From Patescibacteria group bacterium (lineage in GTDB: Bacteria > Patescibacteriota > Minisyncoccia > Phycocordibacterales > UBA12088), in the NCBI GenBank assembly GCA_015491245.1, contig WFWH01000007.1:1-35369 (forward strand): DNA of 35,369 bases, in the 5' to 3' direction. Each line of letters begins with the position of its first letter. The stretch's first letter is position 1. This document shows positions 14,170 through 33,563 of this stretch, in pieces. The position numbers and the translations under genes are program-made. The notes beneath the pieces are model-generated. The model was not told the origin of the DNA, ran no database searches, and was given only the letters and a program-made list of their open reading frames with translations.

Positions 14170-14190
14170 ACTGGCACTTTGGGCGCGGGG

Positions 14191-14218
14191 CTTATACGAC
14201 ACACCAACATACTGTTTA
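14191..14218 (-). promoter_or_regulatory. Promoter of lysS
   Basis: On the minus strand there is TAAACA (14218-14213), 16 bp, then TATAAG (14196-14191), at and just after the greA stop codon. The predicted start near 14184 leaves a leader of about 15 bases to ATG 14169, which supports that start over the upstream track start. Confidence 0.5.
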
Positions 14219-14692: not shown

Positions 14693-14733
14693 AGTTATTG
14701 GTTAGCGTCTGTTGGGATTCGAGTATCTGCCGT

Positions 14734-14762
14734 AGTATAGCGAATTTACCTCCCGCAAACAA
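14734..14762 (-). promoter_or_regulatory. Promoter of greA
   Basis: On the minus strand there is TTGTTT (14762-14757), 17 bp, then TATACT (14739-14734). The start near 14727 gives a leader of about 34 bases to ATG 14692. This is one of the better promoter matches in the window. Confidence 0.65.
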
Positions 14763-14772
14763 GAAGCGCAGG

Positions 14773-16461: not shown

Positions 16462-16468
16462 ACCATTA

Positions 16469-16768
16469 TCAAGAAACCATGATGCGTCGCCGCAACACTG
16501 TTTGAGCCGCCGCCAGTAACACCACAACGGTAGTGAGCGGAAAAGGGATAACGAGAGGATGAGACAACCAAGGGGTGGGCGCCGCCCACCACATATCCAA
16601 CAGCAATGCGCACGCCACGGCGGTTGCGCGATACCCCATGAGGAAAATGAGCGGCACTATGAAGAAAAAAACCCACCAGGGCGCAAAAAAAGATGCAAGC
16701 GCCACCAAGGTGATGAGTGCGAGAGAAGAAAGTATGCGCGAGAGCAATGGGGGAATGCGTACGCTCAT
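16469..16768 (-). CDS. mreD: Short MreD-like membrane protein
   Basis: 99 aa, mostly hydrophobic, with about three membrane segments (ILSSLALITLVALASFFA, WVFFFIVPLIFLMGY, FPLTTVVVLLAAAQTV). MreD normally has about 160 residues and five to six helices, so this is a minimal or divergent form. Identification rests on position between mreC and mrdA. Its ATG overlaps the mreC stop as ATGA (16768-16765), implying translational coupling. The track start at 16891 lies inside mreC and is rejected. Confidence 0.7.
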   Translation of the reverse strand: MSVRIPPLLSRILSSLALITLVALASFFAPWWVFFFIVPLIFLMGYRATAVACALLLDMWWAAPTPWLSHPLVIPFPLTTVVVLLAAAQTVLRRRIMVS

Positions 16769-17595
16769 GGGCGGCTGGTTACGATGCTCAGGTACAATCC
16801 GGAACGCAGTGCGAAGGGAGTGCTGAAGAGCACGGTACGGAGTGCATCCTCCGGCTTGGCGCGCAGTTGTTCCACCGTTCCCAAAACCCACAGTTCGGTA
16901 TCTGAAAGCAGGAGCAGGTCCTCCTCACGTACCGGCGCATCACGGGGAATGAGCGCGCGCAGAGCGCCGCCCCCCAATCCCTCTACCCGCACTGCGGTCA
17001 TACGGCCGTCGCTCAATACCCATGCGTAACGCTCAGTACCGGGAGAAGAAAAGAGAGAAATGAATGCCACTGTTCCCTCACGCGCCACGACCTCTCCCAC
17101 CGCCACCTCCTCGCCGTAGAGCGCCACATCGCCCACCGCCACCTCTTCCGCCTTACCCGCCGGCAGCAGTACTGTCACGAGATCATAGGGTGTTTCCGGA
17201 GGCCGCCGCAAAATTTTCGCCCGCACGCGGGTAGCCTCCCCATCCGCTTCCTCCGCCTGTTCCCGCAGCCTCTGGTTCTCCTCCCGCAGATACGCCAACA
17301 GCTGCCGCTCAAAATAAAAACGCTCCAACTCTTCCCTTAAGCGCGCATTTTCTTGCTCCAAAGCACGCTTGCTTGAGAAGAGTGCCATACCCTCCTGGAA
17401 AGAAGCGTACACAGTATCACTCAAGGTGTAGGCGCCTGCCTGCAGCGCATAGAGCGTGCGCGAAAGAATGCGCGGCGGCCCGGGTGCCCACCATAGCACC
17501 ACGAGCACTACCATAACGGCAAAGAGCACGGGGACGCGCCGCGCTATGCTACGTACGCGGTCCGCGAGCGGTTGGAATGACCGGTTCTTCGTCAT
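16765..17595 (-). CDS. mreC: Rod shape-determining protein MreC
   Basis: A periplasm- or exterior-facing scaffold that links MreB filaments to PBP2. 276 aa from ATG 17595. It has one membrane helix (VPVLFAVMVVLVVLWWAP), a coiled coil (KRALEQENARLREELERFY) and the beta-barrel domain with ILRRPPETPYDLVTVLLPAG, the usual conserved stretch after the coil. The start overlaps the mreB end by 47 bases; a second ATG at 17625 would overlap more. The mreD start overlaps its stop by four bases. Confidence 0.93.
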   Translation of the reverse strand: MTKNRSFQPLADRVRSIARRVPVLFAVMVVLVVLWWAPGPPRILSRTLYALQAGAYTLSDTVYASFQEGMALFSSKRALEQENARLREELERFYFERQLLAYLREENQRLREQAEEADGEATRVRAKILRRPPETPYDLVTVLLPAGKAEEVAVGDVALYGEEVAVGEVVAREGTVAFISLFSSPGTERYAWVLSDGRMTAVRVEGLGGGALRALIPRDAPVREEDLLLLSDTELWVLGTVEQLRAKPEDALRTVLFSTPFALRSGLYLSIVTSRP

Positions 17596-18625
17596 GGCGC
17601 AACAATACGTCGCGGTACGCGGCAAAATCTTCTAAGATGATGCCAGTGCCGCGCGCCACTGTGGTCAGAGGGTCCTCAGCAACACGGACGGCAATTCCCA
17701 ATACCTCCTCCAGTAATTCTCGAAATCCAGGAATCAGCGCGCCGCCGCCGGTCAGCACCACCCCTTCCTGCATAATATCTGAGAGAATCTCGGGCGGCGT
17801 CGCTTCCATAATACTGCGCAAATTTTCTAACAGCGAGTCAATGAGCGGCACCACCGCCTCGCGCATGTCAGTATCGGTAACCACCACTTCGCGCGGCAAA
17901 CCCGTTACCACATCCCGCCCCCGCACCGTCGTCTCAAGGGGTTCCGGCCCCTCGGTAAGCGCACATACCGCAATTTTAAGCTCTTCCGCGGTCTTTTCCC
18001 CTATGACAATTTTAAACGCATCGCGCATGTGCAGCATGATGGCCTGATTGAGATGGTCTCCCGCAATGCGGATGTTCTGCGACGTGACGATGCCGCCCAG
18101 CGACACAATGGCGACATCGGTGGTGCCGCCGCCTATATCAATAATCATATTGCCCTGTGGCAAATGCACCGGAAGGCGCGCGCCAATGGCGGCCGCCATA
18201 GGCTCCTCCACAATGTGCACCTCGCGCGCACCGGCACCGATGGCCGCATCTTTCACCGCCCGTATCTCTACGTTGGTAATGCCGGGAGGAACGCCCACCA
18301 CCACACGAGGCCCCAACAATTTCGTACTCCCCTGCTGGGCAGTATTTAATAGGTACGCCAAAAGCTCTTCCGCCACTTCAAAATCTGAAATAACACCGTC
18401 CACAAGAGGGCGCACTGCGCGCAGATGTTGCGGCGTCCTCCCCAGCATTTCCTTGGCGTGCCGCCCCACCGCCACCACTTGGCCGGTTTTCTCGTTAAGC
18501 GCAACCACCGAGGGCTCATTTACCACAATGCCCTTGCCGCGCACATACACCAGCGTGTTGGCGGTTCCTAAATCAATACCAATATGGTATGCAATGAAAT
18601 TGCTGAGTACGGTAAGTGGCTTCAT
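17549..18625 (-). CDS. mreB: Actin-like rod shape protein MreB (first copy)
   Basis: 358 aa, a bacterial actin that polymerises under the membrane and directs the elongasome. It carries IGIDLGTANTLVYV (phosphate 1), IIDIGGGTTDVAIVSLGGI (phosphate 2), the connect motif VEEPMAAAIGA and the adenosine motif VVLTGGGALIPGF. The N-terminus MKPLTVLSNFIAY is hydrophobic and may insert into the membrane. Its ATG overlaps the proS stop as ATGA (18625-18622), and mreC starts inside its 3' end, so the run is tightly coupled. A second copy lies at 32550-33563. Confidence 0.96.
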   Translation of the reverse strand: MKPLTVLSNFIAYHIGIDLGTANTLVYVRGKGIVVNEPSVVALNEKTGQVVAVGRHAKEMLGRTPQHLRAVRPLVDGVISDFEVAEELLAYLLNTAQQGSTKLLGPRVVVGVPPGITNVEIRAVKDAAIGAGAREVHIVEEPMAAAIGARLPVHLPQGNMIIDIGGGTTDVAIVSLGGIVTSQNIRIAGDHLNQAIMLHMRDAFKIVIGEKTAEELKIAVCALTEGPEPLETTVRGRDVVTGLPREVVVTDTDMREAVVPLIDSLLENLRSIMEATPPEILSDIMQEGVVLTGGGALIPGFRELLEEVLGIAVRVAEDPLTTVARGTGIILEDFAAYRDVLLRHDEEPVIPTARGPRT

Positions 18626-19920
18626 ATCTTAGGCATTACCCCTGCGTCGGGATCCAATAGCAGCGAGGCGGCTTCTTCAATGGGTAACTGCCGCACCGAT
18701 CCAGTTTGGCGCTCCACCCATTCCACCACCCCATCGGCAATGCCGCGGTTTCCCACTACGAGGCGGCAGGGAATGCCTAAGAGATCGCTGTCGCTGAGTT
18801 TCTCTCCCGCATGAAGATGCGGACGGTCATCATACAACACCTCCATGCCTCCCTTTTGCAAGCGCGTATACAGCGCATCGGCGCACTCCCGCACCCCCTC
18901 TTCCTCTCCCAGCCGCACCAGGTGGAGCGCAAAGGGTGCCACCGAGAGGGGCCACACCAGCCCTTTCTCATCCGCATACCGCTCCGCAATGGTCCCCATC
19001 ACACGCGCAGGGCCAATGCCGTAGGATCCCATATACACCGGCACGTTTTCCCCCTCCTCATTTTTATAGGTAAGCCCTAATGCGGTGGAGTATTTGGTGC
19101 CCAGCGGAAATATATTGCCTACCTCTACTGCTTTCTTCTTTTGGAGGCGCGCTTTTTCCAGCCCGATCTCGCGCAGTATTTCGTCCCGGTACACCTCTTC
19201 ATTCACGGCAATACGCTTCTCTTCATCTACGTAAATCACATCCTCACCCGCCTCACAGACCGTTTGGAATTCATCGCTGAATTTACTGAACGATCCTCCA
19301 GACGCAAAGGTGCGGAATGTCCATGCGCCTAACCCGCACCGCGCAAATACCTTTAAATACGCTGCCGCCACTTGCTCGTAAAATGCACGGAACTCCCGCT
19401 CATCCCTACTGAAGGAATAGAGGTCCTTCATCACAAACTCACGCGTGCGCATCACGCCGCTCTTTGCGCGAACCTCATTGCGGAATTTGGTCTGAAACTG
19501 GTACACATATTGCGGTAGATCTTTGTGGGAGGCGATATGGTGCTTCATCATGCGCACCATGGGCTCCTCGTGGGTGTTGGCAAGCCCCAGTTCGCTCCCT
19601 TGGTGGAATGCCTCGCCGTGGTGCAGGCGGGTTTTAAACCACACATCCATCACTGTATCATCCCACCTGCCGCTCGCCTGCCACGGTGCAGGATCCTGCA
19701 GCGAAGAGAGTAGCACCTCCTGCCCGCCAATGGCGTTCATTTCCTCGCGAATGATGTTTTCAATCTTCTTCAGGGTGCGCAGGCCCAGCGGTAAAAAGTC
19801 ATACACCCCCGCCATTTCCTTATGGACATAACCAGCGCGGATGAGCAGCTGAGCGTTCTTTGCCACCTCATCCCGCGGCGCTTCTCTCCTCGTTTTGGAA
19901 AAAAACAATGATTGCCTCAT
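18622..19920 (-). CDS. proS: Prolyl-tRNA synthetase, short form without editing insert
   Basis: Charges tRNA-Pro. 432 aa with class II motif 1 (GVYDFLPLGLRTLKKIENIIREEM), motif 2 (FRNEVRAKSGVMRTREFVMKDLYSF) and motif 3 (GSYGIGPARVMGTIAE), then the anticodon-binding domain with DDRPHLHAGEKLSDSDLLGIP. Between GGSFSKFSDEFQ and VEVGNIFPLGTKYS there are only about 50 residues, where the long bacterial form carries the roughly 180-residue INS editing domain. Mischarged Ala-tRNA-Pro would need another editor. It leads the proS-mreB-mreC-mreD-mrdA run. Confidence 0.94.
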   Translation of the reverse strand: MRQSLFFSKTRREAPRDEVAKNAQLLIRAGYVHKEMAGVYDFLPLGLRTLKKIENIIREEMNAIGGQEVLLSSLQDPAPWQASGRWDDTVMDVWFKTRLHHGEAFHQGSELGLANTHEEPMVRMMKHHIASHKDLPQYVYQFQTKFRNEVRAKSGVMRTREFVMKDLYSFSRDEREFRAFYEQVAAAYLKVFARCGLGAWTFRTFASGGSFSKFSDEFQTVCEAGEDVIYVDEEKRIAVNEEVYRDEILREIGLEKARLQKKKAVEVGNIFPLGTKYSTALGLTYKNEEGENVPVYMGSYGIGPARVMGTIAERYADEKGLVWPLSVAPFALHLVRLGEEEGVRECADALYTRLQKGGMEVLYDDRPHLHAGEKLSDSDLLGIPCRLVVGNRGIADGVVEWVERQTGSVRQLPIEEAASLLLDPDAGVMPKI

Positions 19921-20116: not shown

Positions 20117-21229
20117 TTAGCGGAACAACTTAAGCACATCATTGTAGGTGACTACCGCCATAAGCACGAGCAAGAAAACGAATCCGAAACGGTTGAGCAT
20201 CTGCACCGCTGTGGCATTCACCGGGCGCCGCAAAAGCGCCTCCAAGAGCACTATCACCAGGCGCCCGCCGTCTAGCGCGGGGAATGGCAAAAGGTTTATC
20301 ACGGCAAGGTTGAGCGAGATAAATGCCGTAAAAGTAACCAGGTAGGCAAAGCCGAGCGCGGAAGCGTCCCCTACCATCCCTGCAATACCCACCGGACCCG
20401 TAACTTGCGAGAAATTGGCGTCCAAGGTGAGCGCATCGTAGAGAAAGCCGGCAATCCCCACCGCCACCGCAGCCAGCATCGTCCCTGTCATGCGCGTGCC
20501 CTCCCACAGCGCCGGCAAGAGGGGGAGCCGCTTCACTCCCGCAAGCGACATTTGCACCCCCACCGCAGCGCGCTCCGCTTCTTCTGCGATAAGTCCCCTT
20601 TGGGGAGTTACCGGAATAACCTCCACTGCTCCGTCCCGCCGGACGGTAAACAACACAGGCACTTCGCGCGCGCCCGCCGCAGCAACAAAATCCACTATTT
20701 TCTCTGGGGTCAACTCATCCGCCACCGTGCCATCAGGGAGCGCTGCTGCGACAATTTCATCTCCCGGGCGCAAACCAGCACGCGCTGCGGGAGAGTTCGG
20801 CAGCACCCGCACCACAAGAAGGCGCACCTCCTGTGCGTCAGCACGCTCTTCGGGTGAGAGTGCCGTGGGCATGCCCCATACAAACCCGCCCACGAAAAGA
20901 ACCCACGCCAACAGGATGTTAAAGCCTACTCCTGCAACCAGCACTATCGCCTTTTGCCACCAGGGGCGAAATGAAAAATTGCGTTTTTTCTCTTCCTCGC
21001 TGAGTGTTTCTTCCTCCGCATCCTCACCGAAAATTCTCACGAACCCGCCCAGGGGGAGTGCGTTGAGCGTATATTCTGTTTCCCCTATTTTCTTCCCCAC
21101 CACTTTGGGGGGAAACCCCATCCCAAATTCATCCACGCGAATGCCGAACTTTTTGGCGGCAAGAAAATGCCCCAACTCGTGCACCAAGATAAGCAAAAAA
21201 AGAACAAGAAAAAACAAGAGAATACTCAT
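20117..21229 (-). CDS. rseP: RseP-like site-2 membrane metalloprotease
   Basis: 370 aa intramembrane zinc protease. The first membrane helix holds HELGH (about residues 18-22). The region that follows has FGMGFPPKVV and LNALPLGGFVRIFGED. A PDZ domain spans roughly 125-210 (VLPNSPAARAGLRPGDEIV). The C-terminal helices carry NLLPFPALDGGRL, which supplies the third zinc ligand. Single rather than double PDZ matches the short Gram-positive-like form. It follows frr by 123 bases. TTTAAT five bases before the ATG could serve as a -10 for a leaderless start, but no -35 is apparent. Confidence 0.92.
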   Translation of the reverse strand: MSILLFFLVLFLLILVHELGHFLAAKKFGIRVDEFGMGFPPKVVGKKIGETEYTLNALPLGGFVRIFGEDAEEETLSEEEKKRNFSFRPWWQKAIVLVAGVGFNILLAWVLFVGGFVWGMPTALSPEERADAQEVRLLVVRVLPNSPAARAGLRPGDEIVAAALPDGTVADELTPEKIVDFVAAAGAREVPVLFTVRRDGAVEVIPVTPQRGLIAEEAERAAVGVQMSLAGVKRLPLLPALWEGTRMTGTMLAAVAVGIAGFLYDALTLDANFSQVTGPVGIAGMVGDASALGFAYLVTFTAFISLNLAVINLLPFPALDGGRLVIVLLEALLRRPVNATAVQMLNRFGFVFLLVLMAVVTYNDVLKLFR

Positions 21230-21352: not shown

Positions 21353-21904
21353 CTAAAAGCTTAGCTCTTTTTCCTTGCGTGCGGCAGCTTCCTGGAGCGC
21401 TTCACCGGCTTCGCGCACTATTTTCTCCATCTCCTCCTTGGCGCGGTACTTTTCATCCTCACTCATTTCCCCTTCTCGCTGTTTCTTTTGTATGTCACTC
21501 CACGCATCATCGCGCGCGCGGCGCACCCGCACGCGCGCCTCTTCCAATTTTTCCTTTACTTTTTTCTTGAGCGCCTCACGCCGCTCGCCCGTGAGGTCGG
21601 GAAACACCACACGCACGCCGCGCTCATCGGCCCCTACGGAAACCCCGAGATCCGCATCGGTAATGGCTTTTTCAATCTTTTTCACGTTGGCCGCATCCCA
21701 CGGAACAACCCGCAGTACCTTTGCGCCCTCTGTGCTAATGGTGGCGACCTGTGTGAGCGGCGTACGCACCCCGTACACCTCTACCGTAACCTGGTCCAGA
21801 AAGGCGGGCGTTGCCTGCCCCGTGTGTATGGCAACGAGTTCGGCAGAAAACCACTCCCGCACTTGGTCTAATTCTTTCGTGAGTGTGGCAAATGAATACC
21901 GCAT
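21353..21904 (-). CDS. frr: Ribosome recycling factor
   Basis: 183 aa, the family's usual size. It dissociates post-termination ribosomes together with EF-G. It shows the three-helix domain I and the beta-sandwich domain II (LVAIHTGQATPAFLDQVTVEVYG). Also present are ISTEGAKVLRVVPWDAANVKKIEKAI, GVRVVFPDLTGERREALKKKVKEK and RRARDDAWSDIQK. It ends in TAG. The ATG is 9 bases after the holB stop, so the two are co-transcribed. Confidence 0.96.
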   Translation of the reverse strand: MRYSFATLTKELDQVREWFSAELVAIHTGQATPAFLDQVTVEVYGVRTPLTQVATISTEGAKVLRVVPWDAANVKKIEKAITDADLGVSVGADERGVRVVFPDLTGERREALKKKVKEKLEEARVRVRRARDDAWSDIQKKQREGEMSEDEKYRAKEEMEKIVREAGEALQEAAARKEKELSF

Positions 21905-21913: not shown

Positions 21914-22576
21914 TTAAGGATATACCATCGGGCACGTGACCGCAACGTACTCCAGTATTTGCTTCACGGAAGGGGCGCGCCCCAAGAGATACGTGCGCAG
22001 GAGCGGCAGCTGGCGCAGCAGGGCGCGCGCCGCTTCGTCGTCGCGCGCGTAGCGCGCCAACGCAGCCTCCAGCGCGTCTAAGAGCGCCAACGCGCCTTCC
22101 TTGTCCCCCTTCTTTACAAGCGGCGCCACGTAGCGCAGTTTTTCACCCCTCTCCAGGGCGAGCAGGTGCACTCCCTCGTCAGGGGGGCGCACGTCCTGCG
22201 GGGGACGGCGCAGGAGCGCTACGCGCGAGCGCACCGTGGGCAACAATGTGGCGGCACGAGGAATGATAATAATAAAGCGGGAAGCGGCGGGCGGATCCTC
22301 TAGCAGCTTCAGCAAGGCGTTTTGCGCCTCAGTGGTAAACGTGAGCGCGGCCGCAATTAGCCACTGCCGCGCGCCACTGGGTTTTTGTGTGGCGGTATGC
22401 GCTAACGCGCGCACCTCACTAATGCCGAATGTATCATGCAAAAAAAAGCGCACATCGGGGTCATGCAATGAAAGCGGTACGCCGGCCCGCGCGGCAATCA
22501 CCGCCTGTGCTTCCTCAGGAGTGGATACTTTTTCCTCAATCACTGTTGCGTGGTGCCACATACCTTTGTTGAGCAT
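21914..22576 (-). CDS. holB: DNA polymerase III delta'-like clamp loader subunit
   Basis: 220 aa with the AAA+ fold of the delta' subunit. It has TTEAQNALLKLLEDPP (about 85-100), the most recognisable motif of the gamma/delta' family, then RFIIIIPRAATLLPTVRSRV, which contains the sensor 1 and SRV/SRC region. No Walker A is seen, as in delta', so it likely does not hydrolyse ATP. The C-terminal collar is short. The start at ATG 22576 is used; ATG 22561 (MWHHATV) is an alternative with AAAGG before it. It precedes frr. Confidence 0.8.
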   Translation of the reverse strand: MLNKGMWHHATVIEEKVSTPEEAQAVIAARAGVPLSLHDPDVRFFLHDTFGISEVRALAHTATQKPSGARQWLIAAALTFTTEAQNALLKLLEDPPAASRFIIIIPRAATLLPTVRSRVALLRRPPQDVRPPDEGVHLLALERGEKLRYVAPLVKKGDKEGALALLDALEAALARYARDDEAARALLRQLPLLRTYLLGRAPSVKQILEYVAVTCPMVYP

Positions 22577-22661: not shown

Positions 22662-25600
22662 TTACGCTTTCCCTTGCTGGTTCTGCCGCGGCACTGCCTC
22701 CTGCAGGCGCGCAATCCACTGGCGCAGTGTCTCATCCTTGCGCGGCATAAGCGGGCGCAGCGCTTCTTCCCACTGCCCCTCGCCTGTGCGGGCCACCGCA
22801 CGCTGCATAAGGCGCGCTGCGTGATGATAGAGCAACATACGGTCCGCTTCTTCCGAGAACTGCCTGATCTGGCGCATCAGCCGGTCTCGCTCTTGTTTTA
22901 ATTGCAGCTTTTTTCGCGCCACCCTCTCTGTGCCTTGAAGCCACTGCCATATTTTTGCCACTCCCCGAGGGTTGTCCAGCCGCTCCGCGTTGCGCTCAAC
23001 CTCGCGCAGGTGGTGATTAAGGGAGTCTATAGTGGCAAGGATAATGGCGCGCTGGCTGTCAAAGGTTTCCGCCGCGGGTGCGGGCTTCGCCTCGCGCACC
23101 CCAACCGGCCGCGGGCGCGCGGGGTGGAGCGCTGCCAAAAAATCGTGTGCAGGATCTTCTGCGTGGCGCTGCAGCACTTCCGCGAGGTGTTCCCTTTCGG
23201 CGTATATTTCGTGCTGCTCTTTTTCCTCGGAAGTGCGCACAGCCTCCGCGGAAAGGGGCGCGGCGGTGGCGCGCGGCGGGCTCTCTCGCTCATTTGCGGC
23301 CTCGGCGCCGCGCGCGGGCGCCTCCGCTGGTGCTGCACCGGCCGCATGCCCTTCGGCGCCCGTGAGTTGCGCACGGAGCTCTTTCATCCACGTGCGCACA
23401 TTTTCTGCGCGCCACGCGAGCTCTTTCTGAAATGCCGCGGCACGGCGCTCCGTAGGAGTTCCGTCTTCGTCTTTAAGCTTCCCTTCTTTAAAGCGCGCAA
23501 AACGGCCCAGCACCCGTTCCAAATGCGCCATCTCCTTCTTCAGCGGACCATAGAGAAAATGCTGCGCCGGATCTTTGCCCTCCTTTTGCATTTCCGCCAT
23601 AAAGGCGAAGAAGTCGCGCTGCGCGGCACGCGCCGCCTCTTCAGGATCACGTGCGCCAGATTCAAGGTGCGCAGAAGCGCCCTCCGCGTAAGGTGCAGTG
23701 CGCGAGGTGTCCCCTGATTTTGGTTCCTCCTGGGAGTGGCCACCCCCCTCTGTGTGCCCACCAAGCACACGTTGCACGGCCGCTATCAGGGGGCGCAATG
23801 CCGCATTGCACTGTGCAATCCTCTGCCGCTTCTCTTCCAATTGTGCCAGGTAGCGCATGTTGCTCCTGGCATCATGCCCCGATCCTGTATTGCGTGCCTC
23901 ACGAAATTCCTGTACCGCCTGCGCGAGCGCACCGACCGCGGCAAGAAAACGCCGCACCTCTTCCTTCCCTGCAAGATCCTGCGCGCGGAGCTGCAATTCC
24001 TGCACCAATCCCTCGCTCACTCGCAGGAGATCCTCTGCCTCTGCAGGTGCAGGTTTGGCGTAAGGGGCAGCTTCCGGGTGAGCGGATGCAGCCTCTTTTT
24101 CAGGCGCTTCCCGCGCTCTTTCCGCTGCTTCGGCCGCGGGAACGGCGCCGGAATCCGCATCGCCGCGCCTAACCGCCTCTGCCGCTTTTTGTGTTGCCGC
24201 TGCTGCCTGCGGCTGTGGCGGGGCGAATCCCGCACCACGTGCTGTTGCCTCTTGCTCCCCGGAGTGCCGTGGTTCCTCCATGGCGGCGCGCACGTGCGCC
24301 AATAGCGCCTCTATGCGCGCCACCTTTTCCCTTGCCTCATCGGCAAACAAGTTAGGGGTATAGTAAGGGTTAGCATTCCCTGCCGCGGCATTTTGCTCAT
24401 CCCGGCGCGCCTCTTCCTCGTAGCGCTCTTTCAGTGCCGTTAAGGAGCGCACCAGTGCGGCATATTCCTCTTGTGCCTTGCGCAAATCTTTTTCAAGGTT
24501 TGCTGCGCGCCTTCCTGACTCGGATGCTTCGTATGCTTCCCACTGCTCTTCATAATCTTCCGCGCTCAATGCCGCTATAGCCTTGGGCTTGTGGCGCTCT
24601 TCTCCCTCAAGCGCAGCGCGCAGTTTCCGTATCTTGTCTGCCAGCGCCTTCGCGCGGCGCGGCGCATCCCTCAGTAGGGTGCGCTCCTCGCACTCTTGCA
24701 AAAGAGGGCGCAGCGCCTCGGAAAACTCTCTGGTTGCTGCAGCGACATTGCGGCGCGCCGCCGCCACCTCTGCCGCATGTTCCTTTTCCTCTTCGGGAGA
24801 AGTGGCGAGTGCGCGCTGCTCGCTCAAATGGATAAATTTATTGAGGGCATGCTGCAGCGCATCCCGCGCGCGCAGGAAAGAGATAAACATTCCCCGCACC
24901 TCAGCCACACTCACGCCGCTTTGCGCCAAACGCGCCTCTATTTTTTGGCGCCAATTCCTAACCTCTTCCAGCGCCTTACGCGCCTTAGAAACATCCAGTG
25001 TTGCCTCGCCGCGCGCTTCCGGAAGCGGCGTTTCCGGTGCAGGCGCTTCGGGTGCGGAGGATTCTTTTCCATTTTCAGCGGGTGCGGCCGCACCCAGCAC
25101 ATGGTAAAGGTGGGTGAGCTTCTCTTTCGCAACATTGGCTCGCTCCACCAATATTTCCCTCTCTGCGGTATTTCTCTTTCTCGCTTTTTGCAGCGCTTCC
25201 GCCCTCTGTACCGCCTCGGCTACTGCCTTGCGCGCAGTGGCCCACGCGCCGCCGTGGCGCCGGTCAAACTCCTTCAATGAGCCATATCTCGCCCTTATCT
25301 GTGTGCGCGCGCCGTCAAGCTCCTCGTTAAGTACGGCTGCGAGCGCCACAAACGCGTGCTTTCTTGCTTTCTCTTCGCCACAGGCGGCAATCGCATCGTC
25401 AAGCGCTTGCAATCGCAGAGGACGCAATGCCCCAGCCGCTTCTTTTCGCCGCTCCGGTGGCGCCTCCTCTGAAGCTTGCGCTGGCTTTGGTTTTTCCTTC
25501 TCGGGCGGCATGGCCGGCGGAGCTGTTTTTTGCTCCGCCGGCGCGGCGCCATGCGCGCGCACTGCATTAATGATTTCCCGCTCAAGAGCAGCCACTTCTC

Positions 25601-27533
25601 CTTCCCACACCTTTGCGCGTTCCTTGAGCCACGTGGAGATATCCTCCCCCTTCTGCGAACCATTCTCCTGCAGACGTGCGGCCACTTCGCCCTTAAACCT
25701 CTCCTCCATTGCTTGCACTCTTTCCTCAAGTGCACGTGCCAACTCCGGCGCGCCCACGCGCCGCGCCAAGCCCCGCAAGAGGAACATGCGTGCCGCAAGC
25801 GGCTTTTCTATATGGTCCTGCTCACCGCGCTGCACCTTTTCTAGGATCTCTTCCTTTTCAGAACTTTGCACCCTCTCAGCCCCGAGTATCTCCCCAAAAA
25901 CGCGCTTGAGGCCGACAAGCGCTTCCACCCTCTCTCTCAAAACTTCCGCCTGAGCGGCAATATCCCGAAGTGCCGCAAAGCGCTGCGCAAGCCGCGTACA
26001 CGCTTTCTCTTTTTCCTCCTCCGCTGCGTGGCCATCATTCACCGTCTTGGTATCGGCAATGATTTCCCGTGCGAGGCGATCTTTTTCCTCCCTCAGAGAC
26101 GCAGCAGCATCTTTAATTTCATCCGCAAGCGCAAACGCGGGCACCTCCCCCTTTTGCCCACGTGGCGTTTTTTCCTTATTTTCCGTACCCAATTCCGGGT
26201 ACCATCCACGCAGCGCCTCGTTGTAGCACGCCCACGCAAGGCTGGCTATTCTCCTCTCCGGCGCACGTTCCTCTTTGAGAAGCCGCAGCGCATCGTTGAG
26301 GTTCCCGTCCACCTGTCGCGCCCACTTGGCAAGCGCTCCTTTTTCCGGCCGCATTGGTTCACCTTTTACACGCTCCGATGCAGCGACAGTGCCGCGCCCG
26401 GCAGTGCGCCCTTCCTCATCTGCAATCCCTCCTCCTTCTCCGCCGTGTAAGTCCTCTTCTGTACGCGTGCGGCGCACGCGGAAGCGGCGCCTTCCGGCAG
26501 GAGGCGCGGGCGTGCCCTCGGCTGCTTCTTCATCCGCGCGTGACACAGCGCGCGCCCCGCCCTCTTCCGCGACCTTTGAGAGCTTAGGAGACGCAGCGGG
26601 CTTCCCCTCCTCTGCCTCTGCAAGCTCCGGTGCTACTTTTGCCGACGCGTGGGGTTGCGTTTCCTCTCCGGCCCGCGGTACCGCGGGCGCGCTGCGCTCC
26701 TCGGACACGGCGCGCTGCGCTCCCGCCACGGCACCTTCACTCCGCTTCTCTTTTAAAAGGGCGCGCAACCTTTTCTCTCTTTCCGCACCCGTCAAGGGCG
26801 GCGAGGAAGCACGTGCGGGCTTTGCCTGGGCGACTAAGCGGGCGGCATGTGCCGCATGTACGGCGGCTTTCCAAAACTTATTCCTCTCACTCACACTGGC
26901 GCTCCCCCCTTTTTCAAATGGGCGCAATCCCTCTTGCGCTCTCTGCAGTATCTGTTGCGCCACAACCCCGCGCTGTGGTGCGCCACCCCCTCTCTTTTTC
27001 TTTCCCTCATCGGGAATAGAGGGTGACTGCTGCTCACCGATCTCCTCCAGCAGTTCCTTCAAGAGCGTGCTCTGCATGGAGTTATAAGTGCGCTGCAATT
27101 CTTCTTCAAAATTGGTAAGCGCGTGCTGGCACTGTTCCAGTGCTTCGTTGCTGGGAAGAATTTCCTTGAGCTCCTCCTCAAATCCATGCGGCTTCTTTTT
27201 TCCTGCAGCCGCACTTTTTTGGGCCACCGCTTCTATTTTGGAAAACGCTGCTTCATCCCACTTCTTTTTTTCTGGAAGCGCCACACCCCACAGAAAGTCC
27301 CGAAATTCTTCCTGTTCCTTCTTATCCTGCAGTTCTCTGAAGAAATCTTCCGCGCGCTTGCGTGCCTCTGCAATCTCCGCGCAGCGCGCCACCGCTGCCG
27401 CCACGCGCTCCGCTTCTGCGGCGCGGTGCGGCACTGTGCGCTTTTTTTCCGCAGCGGGAGCGGACGGGCTCTCTTCGCGCGAGGCCGGTTTTTTTTCGGG
27501 ATTTGGCTGGGGCGGTTTTTCTTGGTGTGCCAT
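22662..27533 (-). CDS. Giant Ala/Glu/Arg-rich helical protein, 1623 aa, unknown function
   Basis: The longest gene in the window. No signal peptide, membrane helix or enzymatic motif is visible, so it is probably cytoplasmic. The sequence alternates charged helical blocks of about 100-200 residues with Ala/Pro/Glu/Gly-rich linkers, roughly at 255-400, 700-750, 855-885, 1130-1220 and 1440-1480. A short theme recurs in some blocks: FRDFLWGVALPEKKKW, DPAQHFLYGPLKKEM and DPAHDFLAALHPARP. The ATG at 27533 follows AGAGG closely. Base composition and codon use match its neighbours, which argues against recent transfer. I recognise no family. Possible roles include a scaffold or filament-forming protein, but nothing shown here proves it. 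Confidence 0.8.
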   Translation of the reverse strand: MAHQEKPPQPNPEKKPASREESPSAPAAEKKRTVPHRAAEAERVAAAVARCAEIAEARKRAEDFFRELQDKKEQEEFRDFLWGVALPEKKKWDEAAFSKIEAVAQKSAAAGKKKPHGFEEELKEILPSNEALEQCQHALTNFEEELQRTYNSMQSTLLKELLEEIGEQQSPSIPDEGKKKRGGGAPQRGVVAQQILQRAQEGLRPFEKGGSASVSERNKFWKAAVHAAHAARLVAQAKPARASSPPLTGAEREKRLRALLKEKRSEGAVAGAQRAVSEERSAPAVPRAGEETQPHASAKVAPELAEAEEGKPAASPKLSKVAEEGGARAVSRADEEAAEGTPAPPAGRRRFRVRRTRTEEDLHGGEGGGIADEEGRTAGRGTVAASERVKGEPMRPEKGALAKWARQVDGNLNDALRLLKEERAPERRIASLAWACYNEALRGWYPELGTENKEKTPRGQKGEVPAFALADEIKDAAASLREEKDRLAREIIADTKTVNDGHAAEEEKEKACTRLAQRFAALRDIAAQAEVLRERVEALVGLKRVFGEILGAERVQSSEKEEILEKVQRGEQDHIEKPLAARMFLLRGLARRVGAPELARALEERVQAMEERFKGEVAARLQENGSQKGEDISTWLKERAKVWEGEVAALEREIINAVRAHGAAPAEQKTAPPAMPPEKEKPKPAQASEEAPPERRKEAAGALRPLRLQALDDAIAACGEEKARKHAFVALAAVLNEELDGARTQIRARYGSLKEFDRRHGGAWATARKAVAEAVQRAEALQKARKRNTAEREILVERANVAKEKLTHLYHVLGAAAPAENGKESSAPEAPAPETPLPEARGEATLDVSKARKALEEVRNWRQKIEARLAQSGVSVAEVRGMFISFLRARDALQHALNKFIHLSEQRALATSPEEEKEHAAEVAAARRNVAAATREFSEALRPLLQECEERTLLRDAPRRAKALADKIRKLRAALEGEERHKPKAIAALSAEDYEEQWEAYEASESGRRAANLEKDLRKAQEEYAALVRSLTALKERYEEEARRDEQNAAAGNANPYYTPNLFADEAREKVARIEALLAHVRAAMEEPRHSGEQEATARGAGFAPPQPQAAAATQKAAEAVRRGDADSGAVPAAEAAERAREAPEKEAASAHPEAAPYAKPAPAEAEDLLRVSEGLVQELQLRAQDLAGKEEVRRFLAAVGALAQAVQEFREARNTGSGHDARSNMRYLAQLEEKRQRIAQCNAALRPLIAAVQRVLGGHTEGGGHSQEEPKSGDTSRTAPYAEGASAHLESGARDPEEAARAAQRDFFAFMAEMQKEGKDPAQHFLYGPLKKEMAHLERVLGRFARFKEGKLKDEDGTPTERRAAAFQKELAWRAENVRTWMKELRAQLTGAEGHAAGAAPAEAPARGAEAANERESPPRATAAPLSAEAVRTSEEKEQHEIYAEREHLAEVLQRHAEDPAHDFLAALHPARPRPVGVREAKPAPAAETFDSQRAIILATIDSLNHHLREVERNAERLDNPRGVAKIWQWLQGTERVARKKLQLKQERDRLMRQIRQFSEEADRMLLYHHAARLMQRAVARTGEGQWEEALRPLMPRKDETLRQWIARLQEAVPRQNQQGKA

Positions 27534-27593: not shown

Positions 27594-28952
27594 TCACGTG
27601 CGGACCAGCGCAAGGCGGCGCGCCACATAGGGCGTGAGCGGCGGCTCAATGAGCAGGGTATACAGGATCACCCACATCCCCACCGCAAAGATGAACTCGC
27701 TCCCCGCAACTCCTGAAGCGAGCGCCACCAGCATGAGAATCGCGGGAATGGCACCCGTCTCCCGAATGAAGCTGAGGAACATGAGCTCCCGCCACGTGAA
27801 TACCGCCTCGTCCCGCACCATCCAGGGGAGCAGGCTGATAAACACCACCAAGGGGCGCACGAAAAACATAAATACCACTGCCGCCACCGCACCGACGGCG
27901 GCCGTTGCCGCAAGCGCGGAGAGCGGCACCACCGCCCCCAAGAGCACAAAAATGACCGGTTTGATAAAGCTGTCCACAAACGTTTCAAAAAATGCGCGCA
28001 CTTCTTTGGTGGCGTGCCGCCCGTCATAGAGCAACCCCGCCACAAACGCCGCCAAAAATCCCGACCCGCCCACCAAACTTCCCAAGGCGAACATGAGGAT
28101 GGGAACGGAAAAAAAGAGCGCGGGATCCGACCAGTGGCGCTTGCTCCGCGCAAGGGAATCGGACCACCGCCCCAACAGCCACGCGCCGAATACGCCGGTT
28201 GCCACACCCCATACTATTTCCAATGTAATGGATTCCACCACCCCGCGCGAGAGCAGAGGCGAAAATTCCACCAGCACAGACCCCGCGCCTGCGGCCGCGA
28301 GCGCCCCCACCAGAAAAAAGCGCGTGACAATGGTTCCCGCAACATCGTTCACCGCGCTTTCCGAGAGCGCGATGTCCCGCAAAAAGGGCTTTTTGAGGCT
28401 GAGATTCTTCAGTGTGGGCAGCAGCGCGGTGGGATCAATGGAAGAGAGAATGGCGGCCGTGAGCAAGAGCGTTATCGCTGGCACGGAAAACCCAAAAAAG
28501 GGCACGAACAGCTCCAGTGCCAGCGCAAACAAGAGCACGGTAAGCAGCGTCCCGACGAGGGAAATGCTGGCAATGGGGGCGAGGTAGCGCGTGAAATTCT
28601 TAAAGGGCACCTCCACGCCTCCAGCAAACAGCACAAACGCCGCGAGCAGCTCCACCACCACGAGCAATGCCGCGCCGTTTTCCGTAAAGAGAGCAAAGGC
28701 AGGCTGCAGCGCCACCCCGAAAAGAATGGCCCACACAAACGAGGGAATCACGGTGCGCGGCGCAAAATAGTTAAGGGTGTATCCCGTCAAAAACAGCACG
28801 CCAAGAGAAAGATACAACCCCTCGGGCACCTTCTGAAACACTGCTGCCGCGCCCGGCAACGCGCGCAACACCCCCGCGAGCAAAAATGCCGCCGCAACCA
28901 GCAAAAGGTACGGTTTCCAGTAAGACGCGACGCGCAGCCCTTGCGTGGCCAT
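27594..28952 (-). CDS. Cation:proton antiporter, NhaP/CPA1-like
   Basis: 452 aa, about 12 membrane segments. It would exchange Na+ or K+ for H+. The ion-binding signatures are SSIDPTALLPTL, with the DP pair in the unwound helix, and ALSESAVNDVAG, which matches the ES-xx-ND motif of the CPA1 group. No cytoplasmic regulatory domain follows; it ends at YVARRLALVRT. The track start at 28964 lies within the probable -10, so I prefer ATG 28952 (MATQGLRV), where transcription from TATGAT would begin. Confidence 0.88.
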   Translation of the reverse strand: MATQGLRVASYWKPYLLLVAAAFLLAGVLRALPGAAAVFQKVPEGLYLSLGVLFLTGYTLNYFAPRTVIPSFVWAILFGVALQPAFALFTENGAALLVVVELLAAFVLFAGGVEVPFKNFTRYLAPIASISLVGTLLTVLLFALALELFVPFFGFSVPAITLLLTAAILSSIDPTALLPTLKNLSLKKPFLRDIALSESAVNDVAGTIVTRFFLVGALAAAGAGSVLVEFSPLLSRGVVESITLEIVWGVATGVFGAWLLGRWSDSLARSKRHWSDPALFFSVPILMFALGSLVGGSGFLAAFVAGLLYDGRHATKEVRAFFETFVDSFIKPVIFVLLGAVVPLSALAATAAVGAVAAVVFMFFVRPLVVFISLLPWMVRDEAVFTWRELMFLSFIRETGAIPAILMLVALASGVAGSEFIFAVGMWVILYTLLIEPPLTPYVARRLALVRT

Positions 28953-28959
28953 ACTTCCT

Positions 28960-28965
28960 ATCATA
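28960..28965 (-). promoter_or_regulatory. -10 element of the antiporter gene
   Basis: TATGAT on the minus strand (28965-28960) lies 7 bases before ATG 28952, so the message would be leaderless or nearly so. A TTGAAA occurs upstream but 27 bp away, too far for a standard -35. Confidence 0.35.
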
Positions 28966-29062: not shown

Positions 29063-31825
29063 CTATAACCCGTACTGCGCGCGTATCCTTTCCTCCACCT
29101 CCGCACGCGGCGTGCCGTAAGTGAGATACGAGAGCTGCTTGAGCTTTTCCGCCGTTTCGGGATCACCCTGGGGCGGCGGCAGAGTGCGGATGTTGAACGG
29201 ATCCTGCGGCACCCCGCGCGCCAAGAGGCGCACGTAGCAGTGGTAGTTGTCAATGTTCATAAGGTCGTGTGCGGAAAACGTGGGAGCAAAATGCTTTTCC
29301 AAAAACTGCGCATCTTCACTGCCGACGCGGAACGCGGTGAGCGACCCCACGTTACCGAACACGGAATCGCGGATGCCCTCCTCCAGTTGCGCGAGGTACT
29401 GGTGGGCGACCGTGAGCGAGAGCGCGTACTTGCGCGCCTCAGAAAAAATGGCGGAGATGGAATCGGTGGTGACATTTTGGAACTCGTCAATATAGAGGAA
29501 GAACGGCGGTTTCTCTCCCACCATATCAACGCGCGAGAGCGCCGCCATAAGGAATTTCCCCACCAAAATGAGGCCCAGCAAATGCGCGTTAATGTCCCCC
29601 AGCAGGCCCTTGGACAAATTGACCAAAAATATCTTGCGCGTATCCATCATTTCGCGGAAATTGAAAGAGGATTTTTGCTGGGCAATGATGGGGCGCATGA
29701 TGTCGTTGGCGGTAAACACGTCAAACTTGTTGGTGATGTAGGGAACGATGTTGGCAAGCGACGCCTCGCCGCCGGCTTTCGTTGCTATCTCTTCCCAGAA
29801 TTGGCGCACGACGGGATTGCGGCAATGGGAGAGCTTGAGGTTTCGGTACGCTTCGTTGGAGAGCACGCGCGACACGTCAAGGAGCGTATTGCCGCTCTCG
29901 GGATGCTCCAGTACCAGTGCGGTCGCGTTGCGGAAGTACTGCTCAAATGCCGGCCCCATACTCTCCGGTATGTGGCGGTAGAGCTTGCGGAAAATGCTGA
30001 ACAGCTCGTTGATGACAAAGGTTTTCTGCTCGGGGCGGTTCTGGTCATACTCCAGCATATTGAGCCCCATGACCCGCTCCATATAGCTGGGATCAAAATA
30101 CACCACATCTTTATGGCGCTTCGGCGGCACGGCGGCGAGCACATCCTGCACGTCATTGCCGTGCGGATCAATGAAGCACACCCCGTGCCCCTGGAGAATG
30201 TCTTGCACGCAGAGGTTCACCAGAAACACAGATTTGCCGGTGCCGGTTTGTCCGATGACGTACAGGTGCCGCATCCGGTCGGCGGTGGTGAGATACACGC
30301 GGGTGGTCCTGCCCCGAAACTCGTTCACCCCCAGCAGGGTGCCCTCCTGCGGCAGGGAAAGCGGCGGCGCAACTTCGGCGGATTTGCTCTGCCGAAACTC
30401 CGGCGAGGCATGGATGAGCGCCGGATCGGGAAAATGCATCAGGCTCGCCGCCTCGCGCAGGGAGAGGGGCAGCGCTTCGGCGGTAAGGAAGCGGCGAAAG
30501 ATAATGGCGCGTACTGCCTCCCGCTTGCGCCGCGGCGGCGCCGGCACGAAGCGAAATCCGTTCCCCCCGACCAAATCAAACTGGTTGAAGCTGGAGAGAA
30601 TCTCGTGCAGCAGCGCGCGGGCGCGCCCGCCGCGGTGCGTGGACACCGCCACACGCACATTAGCCGCCACCACGGGCGCTGCGAGTTTCTTCCGCACCAG
30701 CTCCATGGTGGTGTGGTCGGGCCCTTTGTCCTCCACTCCTTCGTCTTTTTTATCCTTCTCGCCCTTGGGAGGGAAAAAGACCTCGCGCAGGGTCGCCGCT
30801 ATCTCTCCCGTCCAGTGGTCCGGTGTGTCTTTGAGTGCTTCCTTGAGCGCCTTCCCTTTTTCCATCTTTTCCGCCACTTTCAAATAGCGCTTGGTATAGC
30901 GGTCGCCCACGGGGCGTATCACCATTTGGAACGAGGCGCCCTCTCCCTTGTCCGCCAGTTTGGAAAATACGTTAATCATCACATTGAGCGGGTCGTGGTC
31001 AAACTCCTCGTACGTTTTGAGAGGAAGAATGGGATCTTCCTTCAGGCGCGCGGAGGCAACCTCCACCTCGCCGTCGCGCACGAAAATATTGTAGTCCGCT
31101 TTTTGCTCCACCAGCCGCGCATCCGGAAACAGCCCGCCCACGTGCTTCTGGAACAGCTCTTTCCGGTCGGTCGGAACGGCAAGGTAGAGCACAATATCGG
31201 GCGCCGACTCCGCCACCGCCAGCTCTATGGAAAAATGCCGCTTACCCAGTGTCTTGGGGTCAGCAATGGAGAGCATGCCCGCGTAAAACTGCTCCATGAC
31301 GGAGATGCGCTCCTTCAGCCCCCCGGATGGGCCTGCCCGCTCCTTTTCATCCGCCACCTTGGGGAGCATGACCTCAAACAGGGTCATGTGCAGCTCATCC
31401 CACAGCGGCGTCCCCTCGCGCACATCTTTCGCCGTATACCCCTCCGCGAGGTAGCGCACCAACGCGCGATGGAAATCATCCTCCAAATGGGGGTTGCCCA
31501 TTTTTGCTACCACCGACAGCGCGTTTTTCACCCCGCGGCGCTGCACAATACCCAACAGCTCCCCCACCGCCTCGTCGTCCTCATCGGGCGGCAGATCCAA
31601 AATGATTTCGCCAATTTCATGCACATCGGCCCGATACTCGGCGCTGAGCACCCGCTCGGGCGGCACCTGCGCATACGCGCGCACCACCTCTTCGGCCGCC
31701 TCGTGCACCGGCACCTCGCGCGCCTCCCGAGCGGCGAGGCGGCGCTGCGTTTCCTCCACCTGCCGCTGCAGGTGCGCCAGCTCTTCCTGCGGATCGCTAA
31801 ACCTCTGATGGGTCTCGTGCGCCAT
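29063..31825 (-). CDS. VirD4/TraG-HerA-like ATPase, unanchored
   Basis: 920 aa, a DNA- or substrate-translocating ATPase of the FtsK-HerA superfamily. The N-terminal half (1-500) is charged, with a coiled coil at about 10-40 and no membrane helix. The ATPase half has Walker A VIGQTGTGKSVFLVNL (about 520-535), HGVCFIDPHGND, Walker B FFLYIDEFQNV (about 773-783) and AHQYLAQLEEGIRDSVFGNVG, as in conjugative coupling proteins. Classical VirD4 is anchored by two N-terminal helices; this protein lacks them, and no relaxase or type IV secretion genes lie nearby. A role in DNA handling, uptake or secretion is possible. It ends in TAG. Confidence 0.85.
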   Translation of the reverse strand: MAHETHQRFSDPQEELAHLQRQVEETQRRLAAREAREVPVHEAAEEVVRAYAQVPPERVLSAEYRADVHEIGEIILDLPPDEDDEAVGELLGIVQRRGVKNALSVVAKMGNPHLEDDFHRALVRYLAEGYTAKDVREGTPLWDELHMTLFEVMLPKVADEKERAGPSGGLKERISVMEQFYAGMLSIADPKTLGKRHFSIELAVAESAPDIVLYLAVPTDRKELFQKHVGGLFPDARLVEQKADYNIFVRDGEVEVASARLKEDPILPLKTYEEFDHDPLNVMINVFSKLADKGEGASFQMVIRPVGDRYTKRYLKVAEKMEKGKALKEALKDTPDHWTGEIAATLREVFFPPKGEKDKKDEGVEDKGPDHTTMELVRKKLAAPVVAANVRVAVSTHRGGRARALLHEILSSFNQFDLVGGNGFRFVPAPPRRKREAVRAIIFRRFLTAEALPLSLREAASLMHFPDPALIHASPEFRQSKSAEVAPPLSLPQEGTLLGVNEFRGRTTRVYLTTADRMRHLYVIGQTGTGKSVFLVNLCVQDILQGHGVCFIDPHGNDVQDVLAAVPPKRHKDVVYFDPSYMERVMGLNMLEYDQNRPEQKTFVINELFSIFRKLYRHIPESMGPAFEQYFRNATALVLEHPESGNTLLDVSRVLSNEAYRNLKLSHCRNPVVRQFWEEIATKAGGEASLANIVPYITNKFDVFTANDIMRPIIAQQKSSFNFREMMDTRKIFLVNLSKGLLGDINAHLLGLILVGKFLMAALSRVDMVGEKPPFFLYIDEFQNVTTDSISAIFSEARKYALSLTVAHQYLAQLEEGIRDSVFGNVGSLTAFRVGSEDAQFLEKHFAPTFSAHDLMNIDNYHCYVRLLARGVPQDPFNIRTLPPPQGDPETAEKLKQLSYLTYGTPRAEVEERIRAQYGL

Positions 31826-31887: not shown

Positions 31888-32550
31888 TCAGGAGGCGTGC
31901 GGCGGCGCGGTGGATGTTTCGTTCCCCTTCCGTGCGCGCAGCATGCGCCACGCGCCCAGTCCCGTCAGCGCAAACACGGCGATGAGCGTGAGCACCTGCG
32001 GGAGTATCGGTAGCGCCGCGGCATAGGAAAACACAAAAGCAAACGGCGTGACCCCCAACAGGGTCGCCCAAAAATACACGCCTTGCGCAACCGTGGAAAA
32101 GAGGCCCACCGCGTAGGAGAGCACGTCCACTGGCAACAGGAGCCGCAGGAGAAAAAGGGTCCAGAAAGGGCGCTGCCCCAACAGCACGCCCACATAGGCG
32201 TCGGCGCGCTCCAGGGGCGCCACGCGCGCAACCGCCCCGCGCAACACGGAGCGGGAAAGCTCAAACGCAATTTGCGCGCCCGCGGTCCACCCCGCCACAC
32301 TCAACACCGCCGCCCACAACGGGCCCCACAGCACCACCGCCACCGGTATGAGCGGGAGCGTGGAGAACGGTGCCACCACGACGGCGGCAGCGGTAAGCAG
32401 CACGTACTCCGCCATACCCCATGGCCCGCGCAGCACTGCCGCGCTGAGGAGCGCGTCTTGGTAGCGCGCCGCGAGAAACGACACCCCTGCGAATGCCGCA
32501 ATGACCAGCGCGGCGGCGAGATACTCGCGTTCTCCCGGTTTTTTCCCCAT
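31888..32550 (-). CDS. VTT-domain (TVP38/TMEM64, DedA-like) membrane protein
   Basis: 220 aa from ATG 32550. It has about five membrane segments with the VTT/SNARE-associated core: VVAPFSTLPLIPVAVVLWGPLWAAVLSVAGWTAG, then LLLRLLLPVDVLSYAVGLF, then GVTPFAFVFSYAAALP. The family includes lipid scramblases and undecaprenyl-phosphate flippases, so a role in envelope lipid movement is a reasonable inference beside wall genes. The start codon shares one base with the stop of the upstream mreB copy (TAATG), implying coupled translation. The track start 32625 lies inside mreB and is rejected. Confidence 0.85.
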   Translation of the reverse strand: MGKKPGEREYLAAALVIAAFAGVSFLAARYQDALLSAAVLRGPWGMAEYVLLTAAAVVVAPFSTLPLIPVAVVLWGPLWAAVLSVAGWTAGAQIAFELSRSVLRGAVARVAPLERADAYVGVLLGQRPFWTLFLLRLLLPVDVLSYAVGLFSTVAQGVYFWATLLGVTPFAFVFSYAAALPILPQVLTLIAVFALTGLGAWRMLRARKGNETSTAPPHAS

Positions 32551-33563
32551 TAGCGTTTGGTGATAATGCTGCGCTTGTAGGCATCCAAATGTTGGAGTGC
32601 CATGCCGGTGCCGCGCACCACGCACAGCGGGGCATCTTTGGCAAGCCGCGCGCGCACGCCGGTGCGGCGCAGCACCAGCTCGGGAAAGTGCCGCAGGAGC
32701 GAGGAGCCACCGGTCATGATAATGCCTTGGTCAATGATATCTGCCGCAAGTTCCGGCGGCGTGTTCTGCAGCACATCAGTCATCGCGCGGATAATCTCGC
32801 GCAATTCCCTTTGGATGGCGGCAACCACCTCATTGGTGCGTATCTCAGTGGTGCGCGGCAAGCCGCTCACCACCTCGCGCCCCTTCACCGTATGCACGAG
32901 CTCGTCGTCTACCGGCAGCGCCGCCCCTACCGCTATTTTTATCTCCTCCGCTGTTTTTTCCCCTATGGAGAGATTGTGTGCCTTTTTCACATAATCCACA
33001 ATGGCGCGGTCAATGCGGTTGCCCGCGCACTTTACGCTGGTAGCGGTGACGATGCCACCCAACGAGATGACGGCCACATCTATGGTGCCGCCGCCGATGT
33101 CCGCCACCATGTGCCCCTTGGCTTCTTGAATAGGTATGTTGGCACCAATTGCCGCAAGGATCGGTTCCTTCACCACAAAGGCGTTCCGCGCGCCCGCGTG
33201 AATGGCCGCCTCTATGACCGCGCGGCGCTCGGTGGAGGTAACACCTGCGGGTACGGAAATGAGCACATCGGGGCGCAGCAGGTTCCATCGCCCCAGCGCT
33301 TTGCGTATGTAGTACGTCAGCATCGCCTCCGTCACGCGGTAGTCGGCGATCACGCCATCCTTCATGGGCCGGTATGCCGTAATGTCATCGGGGGTACGCC
33401 CCAGCATGGCTTTTGCCTCATCGCCCACCGCCACCACCTTTTTCCCGTCGGGCCCTATTGCCACCACGGACGGCTCATTGAGCACAATGCCGCGCGAGGG
33501 CGCAAATACCAGTGTAGTGGTGGTGCCGAGGTCAATGCCGAGCTTGGGCGCCAGAGAGAACAT
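32550..33563 (-). CDS. mreB: Second MreB paralogue
   Basis: 337 aa, shorter than the copy at 17549-18625. The actin motifs are intact: LGIDLGTTTTLVFA, VADIGGGTIDVAVISLGG, VKEPILAAIGA and IIMTGGSSLLRHFPEL. It lacks the hydrophobic N-terminal extension, beginning MFSLAPKLGIDLG. No mreC or mreD follows; instead it is fused by a TAATG overlap to a VTT-domain gene. The -10 lies 8 bases before the ATG, so the message is probably leaderless. It is divergent from murA. A specialised filament or a filament co-assembling with MreB1 is possible. Confidence 0.94.
   Translation of the reverse strand: MFSLAPKLGIDLGTTTTLVFAPSRGIVLNEPSVVAIGPDGKKVVAVGDEAKAMLGRTPDDITAYRPMKDGVIADYRVTEAMLTYYIRKALGRWNLLRPDVLISVPAGVTSTERRAVIEAAIHAGARNAFVVKEPILAAIGANIPIQEAKGHMVADIGGGTIDVAVISLGGIVTATSVKCAGNRIDRAIVDYVKKAHNLSIGEKTAEEIKIAVGAALPVDDELVHTVKGREVVSGLPRTTEIRTNEVVAAIQRELREIIRAMTDVLQNTPPELAADIIDQGIIMTGGSSLLRHFPELVLRRTGVRARLAKDAPLCVVRGTGMALQHLDAYKRSIITKR

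What the first reader, a model, noticed from the sequence alone, without database searches (positions are those of the whole stretch)
22662..27533. Giant 1623-aa modular helical protein of unknown function
It makes up about 14% of the window in a probably small genome, with no membrane segments or catalytic motifs. Helical blocks alternate with low-complexity linkers, and degenerate motifs recur (FLWGVAL / FLYGPLKKEM / FLAALHP, preceded by DPAQ or DPAH in two cases). Size and style suggest a scaffold, filament or cytoskeletal partner, possibly relevant to the two MreB copies nearby.
Basis: partly seen in the sequence, partly recalled or inferred. Interest (0 to 1): 0.55.

Follow-up and report, generated by a model that had tools for sequence, protein, structure and literature searches.

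The report
Orphan giant helical Patescibacteria protein
A tiny-genome bacterium carries an intact gene for a very large, all-helical, water-soluble protein that no other searched genome shares, sitting in a cell-wall gene cluster at a spot where some relatives keep other large, fast-changing proteins; it is probably a flexible scaffold, but its partner is unproven.

Summary
The ORF is real: 1623 aa, intact, on the MINUS strand (window 22662-27533); a stop-free run this long has a chance of ~1e-22. It is Ala/Glu/Arg-rich, near neutral, has no transmembrane segment, and is predicted as helical bundles separated by disordered linkers. No sequence relative was found in Pfam, NCBIfam, PHROGs, PDB sequences, phages, IMG/VR, GTDB contigs or 397 genomes of its order, nor a paralogue in its own genome. 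The recurring FL motifs are only marginally beyond chance. It is neither SMC-like nor a tape measure. The locus is the useful lead. The window's gene order (mreB2, VirD4/TraG-like ATPase, ..., holB-frr-rseP-proS-mreB1-mreC-pbp2) recurs in another family (f42), with large low-complexity proteins in the same slot. Across the order, large orphan proteins flank that ATPase far more often than other genes (14/85 vs 4/539). Many of them share a glycine-rich hydrophobic segment, a LysM-like module and a C-terminal motif. The window protein lacks the first two and only resembles the third (p~0.03), so membership is not shown. Best reading: a lineage-specific cytoplasmic helical scaffold filling that slot. 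The MreB link is neither established nor excluded.

The parts
22662..27533 (-). 1623-aa giant helical ORF (P0001), ATG start, stop at 22662-22664
26340..26822 (-). long disordered low-complexity linker, residues about 238-398 (pLDDT mostly below 45)
25089..25454 (-). best-predicted helical bundle, residues about 694-815 (block pLDDT about 80-95 from residue 711)
24264..24998 (-). second confident helical bundle, residues about 846-1090 (block pLDDT mostly 70-93)
27291..27296 (-). FL motif 1 (FLWGVAL, residues 80-81)
23553..23573 (-). DPAQHFL motif, residues 1321-1327
23136..23156 (-). DPAHDFL motif, residues 1460-1466
22707..22733 (-). C-terminal ETLRQWIAR (residues 1601-1609), resembling the C-terminal motif of ATPase/holB-linked large proteins; not significant by an HMM built without it
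27594..28964 (-). neighbour: Na+/H+ exchanger (PF00999)
29063..31825 (-). neighbour: 920-aa VirD4/TraG/HerA-like ATPase, found in 305 of 397 genomes of the order at E<=1e-110
32550..33563 (-). neighbour: mreB2 (name from sequence resemblance and synteny)
21914..22576 (-). neighbour: holB-like (DNA polymerase III delta', PF13177)
21353..21904 (-). neighbour: frr (name from sequence); followed by rseP 20117-21229, proS 18622-19920, mreB1 17549-18625

Best explanation
The gene encodes a lineage-specific, soluble, presumably cytoplasmic scaffold or tether: a string of alpha-helical bundles joined by flexible Ala/Pro/Glu-rich linkers, able to hold several partners together at a distance. It occupies a chromosomal slot (VirD4/TraG-like ATPase ... 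holB, inside the mreB-mreC-pbp2 cell-wall cluster) where another family of the order encodes other large, rapidly evolving, low-complexity proteins. It most likely serves the same envelope-associated machinery as those proteins: the ATPase, or else the wall-elongation proteins. Shown: intact ORF, helical composition and prediction, absence of detectable homologues, positional equivalence, enrichment of such proteins at the ATPase. Inferred: expression, cytoplasmic location, scaffold role, partner.
For: Helices only, alternating with linkers predicted as disordered. No enzymatic, membrane, phage or SMC family hit. The gene order around it is conserved in family f42, with large low-complexity proteins in the same slot in 5 of 5 loci first examined, and a holB-proximal large protein in 6 of 7 further loci. 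Orphan hydrophilic proteins of at least 350 aa flank the ATPase in 14 of 85 flanks (16 before two spurious ORFs were removed by hand) against 4 of 539 flanks of other conserved genes, Fisher p about 5e-10. The exchanger upstream and holB downstream are on the same strand, 60 and 85 nt away.
Against: No sequence similarity to any of these slot proteins above reversed or shuffled controls. It lacks their hydrophobic segment and LysM-like module. A Na+/H+ exchanger lies between it and the ATPase. Members of another genus of its family (g2) keep ATPase-exchanger without it. Single-sequence structure models are low confidence (pLDDT 57-62). The enrichment count pools related genomes and was defined after inspection.
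Confidence: 0.4

Rival explanations
1. It is a highly diverged member of the ATPase/holB-linked large-protein class (LysM giants or the holB-proximal 'gene 2'), having lost or replaced the hydrophobic and LysM modules and kept only the C-terminal motif.
For: Same slot directly upstream of holB as gene 2 in f42. Similar style of helical blocks and Pro/Ala linkers. C-terminal P-x3-ET-x3-W-I-x-R resembles the class motif; the loose regex matches 12 of 1218 ORFs (duplicates included), all but one from ATPase-linked proteins or this one. LysM-class proteins exist in other genera of its family (G002, G004, G005) but none was found in this genome.
Against: HMMs built without it score its tail at chance-like levels: 284 of 10000 shuffles reach the real score, 272 of 3000. 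The regex p of 0.0003-0.0026 is post hoc. No hairpin, no LysM.
Confidence: 0.25
2. It is a cytoskeletal partner of MreB, organising the elongation machinery in this species.
For: It lies between mreB2 and mreB1-mreC-pbp2 on one strand. In three f42 genomes without a detected ATPase the holB-proximal large protein remains in the mreB cluster.
Against: mreB2 and mreB1 are present in relatives whose loci have no such protein. Large orphan proteins occur next to the ATPase without mreB nearby. Nothing in the sequence points to MreB binding.
Confidence: 0.15
3. It is a tape-measure, SMC-like or other already known long-helix protein.
For: Length and helicity; weak Foldseek matches to BAR, catenin, vinculin, MukB/Smc coiled coil and, among viral models, tape-measure proteins.
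Against: No PDB match at E<=0.001 and TM-scores near 0.1 by query length. No PHROG or phage hit. No ATPase head. Housekeeping genes on both sides.
Confidence: 0.05
4. It is a young, taxon-restricted gene with little or no function yet, for example a de novo or composition-driven expansion.
For: No homologue in any searched genome; weak codon bias (0.09 bits per codon); low-complexity composition.
Against: 4.9 kb kept open in an 866-kb genome; confidently predicted helical bundles; in line with the neighbouring genes on one strand.
Confidence: 0.15

Closest known systems
LysM-containing giant proteins next to the VirD4/TraG-like ATPase in this order (e.g. 1238 aa in G205, 744 aa in G123, 1427 aa in G134)
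   Same: Large, hydrophilic, helical with low-complexity linkers, fast evolving, same chromosomal neighbourhood
   Different: They carry a Gly-rich hydrophobic segment and a LysM-like module (Pfam LysM E=1.3e-4 in one); the window protein has neither
holB-proximal 'gene 2' proteins of family f42 (469-742 aa)
   Same: Identical position directly upstream of holB; linkers; C-terminal ETxxx[YF]LRR motif similar to ETLRQWIAR
   Different: A conserved ~130-aa C-terminal domain that is not detectable in the window protein
Patescibacterial VirD4-type coupling ATPases (Quinonero-Coronel et al. 2025, PMC12102498)
   Same: The 920-aa neighbour appears to belong to this abundant group (5,713 homologues in 2,918 genomes, mostly far from virB4, per that paper)
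   Different: I saw nothing in the passages read on giant neighbours; the giant itself is not a T4SS component by any test made here
Eukaryotic helical scaffolds (F-BAR, alpha-catenin, vinculin, talin)
   Same: Strings of long-helix bundles
   Different: No significant fold or sequence match; works-like comparison only

Membership tests
ATPase-linked LysM giant proteins of this order | LysM-like module (alignment A2) | tested here: not met
   HMM does not hit P0001; none found in own genome at E<=0.05
ATPase-linked LysM giant proteins of this order | Gly-rich hydrophobic segment | tested here: not met
   no TM-like window in P0001
ATPase-linked LysM giant proteins of this order | C-terminal E-T-x3-[YFW]-[LI]-x-R motif | tested here: inconclusive
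   regex present at 1601-1609, shuffle p 0.0003-0.0026 post hoc; HMMs built without it p about 0.004-0.03
ATPase-linked LysM giant proteins of this order | encoded beside the VirD4/TraG-like ATPase | tested here: inconclusive
   two genes away, Na+/H+ exchanger between; same slot as in f42
holB-proximal gene 2 of f42 | conserved ~130-aa C-terminal domain | tested here: not met
   tail score 0.3 bits, 272 of 3000 shuffles reach it
holB-proximal gene 2 of f42 | position directly upstream of holB-frr-rseP-proS | tested here: met
SMC-like protein | ABC-type ATPase head with Walker A/B and long coiled coil | tested here: not met
   no such domain
phage tape-measure protein | homology to tape-measure families and tail-gene neighbourhood | tested here: not met
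   and the housekeeping neighbourhood
MreB-associated cytoskeletal scaffold | physical association with MreB | not testable with these tools
   gene order only

The most novel reading that the evidence does not exclude
The window protein is an extreme member of an undescribed, order-wide class of giant, fast-evolving helical proteins that work with a VirD4/TraG-like ATPase widespread in these small-genome bacteria, as scaffold or as translocated cargo recognised through a short C-terminal helix motif.
Probability: 0.15. Interest if true: 0.7.

Novelty: new variant of a known kind. Interest (0 to 1): 0.4.

Why it matters
The protein alone is an orphan scaffold-like giant, notable mainly because it takes 4.9 kb of an 866-kb genome. 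The locus matters more. VirD4-type ATPases are abundant in Patescibacteria but usually lie away from the rest of the secretion genes, and their role is unsettled (PMC12102498). Finding that in many families they are flanked by giant, rapidly diverging proteins, many with a LysM-like module and a shared C-terminal motif, would give a concrete handle on what this ATPase handles.

Tried and rejected
Searches without relatives: Pfam, NCBIfam, PHROGs, PDB sequences, phages, GTDB contig scan, IMG/VR scan, 61 relatives and 397 genomes of the order, own genome at E<=10. phmmer against neighbourhood ORFs: best hits no better than reversed or shuffled queries. C-terminal motif as proof of membership: attractive by regex (51, 55) but not supported by HMMs built without the protein, so rejected as proof. 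A by-eye resemblance of residues 1500-1560 to a helical hairpin of the giants failed an HMM test. Foldseek matches rejected as generic long-helix matches. Promoter and terminator scans at shuffle level. In the enrichment count two hits were removed by hand: G003 445 aa (resembles NusA) and G002 481 aa (overlaps the ATPase antisense).

Full report
Observation. The ORF is real and intact: 22662-27533, minus strand, 1623 codons. The plus-strand reading has many stops. A stop-free run of this length at 60.9% GC has a chance of about 1e-22. GC by codon position is 0.73/0.49/0.61, and codon usage is less biased than in neighbouring genes (0.09 bits per codon). The product is 179 kDa, net charge +1, pI 7.7, 19% Ala, 14% Glu, 10.5% Arg, without a membrane segment. 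The genome has 866,371 bases in 53 contigs and is 97.6% complete.

Anatomy. AlphaFold2 on the two halves, from single sequences and so of low confidence (mean pLDDT 57 and 62), gives helices only. The better-predicted bundles lie at residues about 694-815 and 846-1090, and the long disordered linker at about 238-398. Foldseek against the PDB returns no match at E<=0.001; the weak ones are generic long-helix proteins (F-BAR, catenin, vinculin, talin, Smc and MukB coiled coils). Against viral models two matches pass 0.001 with TM-scores of about 0.1, which I regard as meaningless. The repeats are weak: six FL sites against 2.7 expected, p 0.05; joint similarity of the FL windows p about 0.03; no single pair significant. 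DPAxxFL twice is unlikely by shuffling (0 of 2000) but was picked after the fact.

Relatives. None by sequence: Pfam, NCBIfam, PHROGs, PDB sequences, phages (22), IMG/VR and GTDB contig scans (30, 17), 61 relatives and 397 genomes of the order (10, 18), or its own genome (78).

Locus. On the minus strand the order is mreB2, DedA-like, 920-aa VirD4/TraG/HerA-like ATPase, Na+/H+ exchanger, giant, holB, frr, rseP, proS, mreB1, mreC, pbp2 (gene names without a family search are from sequence and synteny). The ATPase is found in 305 of 397 genomes at E<=1e-110. In another family, f42, the same order recurs with large proteins between ATPase and holB: 1190+482, 1151+742, 1238+535, 1492+469 and 584 aa, and six of seven further loci again carry a large protein next to holB. 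In other families the ATPase lies between map and ndk and is often flanked by large orphan proteins without mreB nearby.

Enrichment. Orphan hydrophilic ORFs of at least 350 aa flank the ATPase in 16 of 85 flanks; after removing two by hand (one resembling NusA, one antisense to the ATPase) 14 of 85, against 4 of 539 flanks of other conserved genes, map and ndk excluded (Fisher p about 5e-10). The genomes are related and the criteria were set after inspection, so the p-value is optimistic. In three f42 genomes without a detected ATPase (G169, G260, G340) the giant is missing too, while the holB-proximal protein stays with mreB2.

A class of giants. Many of these proteins share modules: a Gly-rich hydrophobic segment, a LysM-like module and a C-terminal motif around E-T-x3-[YF]-[LI]-x-R. 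A search with the motif, built without the window protein, hit 27 of 397 genomes, all but one in open frames of 469-2515 aa; in several of these it lies at the extreme C-terminus.

Is the window protein one of them? Tested and not met: LysM, hydrophobic segment, gene-2 C-terminal domain. Inconclusive: C-terminal motif. ETLRQWIAR at 1601-1609 fits the regex, but HMMs built without it give only p about 0.004-0.03 or 0.09. Other genera of its family have LysM giants (G002, G004, G005) and none was found in this genome. So it is equivalent in position but not shown to be homologous.

Interpretation. I commit to a lineage-specific helical scaffold or tether serving the same envelope-linked machinery as the other slot proteins (0.4). 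The partner is open: ATPase or wall-elongation complex. The MreB idea has gene order only. Literature: Quinonero-Coronel et al. 2025 (PMC12102498) report 5,713 VirD4-type homologues in 2,918 Patescibacteria genomes, only 148 near virB4, and do not exclude other functions; my literature searches on this topic turned up no description of giant neighbours.

Limits.

Noticed in passing
L123-L126, L128, L129, L135, L084, L102 and others: Giant (about 700-1500 aa) proteins next to the VirD4/TraG-like ATPase in many families of the order, many with a Gly-rich hydrophobic segment and a LysM-like module; poorly conserved between families.
   Followed up: partly
L163-L174 (regions around hits): A ~40-aa C-terminal motif (P-x3-E-T-x3-[YF]-[LI]-x-R) marks large proteins up to 2515 aa in 27 of 397 genomes; at least some of these (e.g. 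G049) do not lie next to the ATPase.
   Followed up: partly
L177, L178, L179 (G340, G169, G260): Three f42 genomes without a detected 920-aa ATPase also lack the giant but keep the holB-proximal large protein beside mreB2.
   Followed up: partly
L102 (G042), 3962-17091: Five large hydrophilic orphan ORFs (362, 442, 1274, 464, 728 aa) around the ATPase between map and ndk in one genome.
   Followed up: no
L190 (G004), 128-11025: A 1203-aa LysM giant directly beside a 2413-aa ORF that looks like a surface protein, on another contig than the ATPase.
   Followed up: no
L128, 12394-13998: Two adjacent homologous ORFs (273 and 261 aa, 54% identical) downstream of an ATPase-linked giant, resembling phosphoribosyltransferases.
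   Followed up: no
window 1636-3747 (+): Copper-type P-type ATPase with a His-rich N-terminus, followed by a DsbA-like ORF (3942-4748); from reading the sequence only.
   Followed up: no
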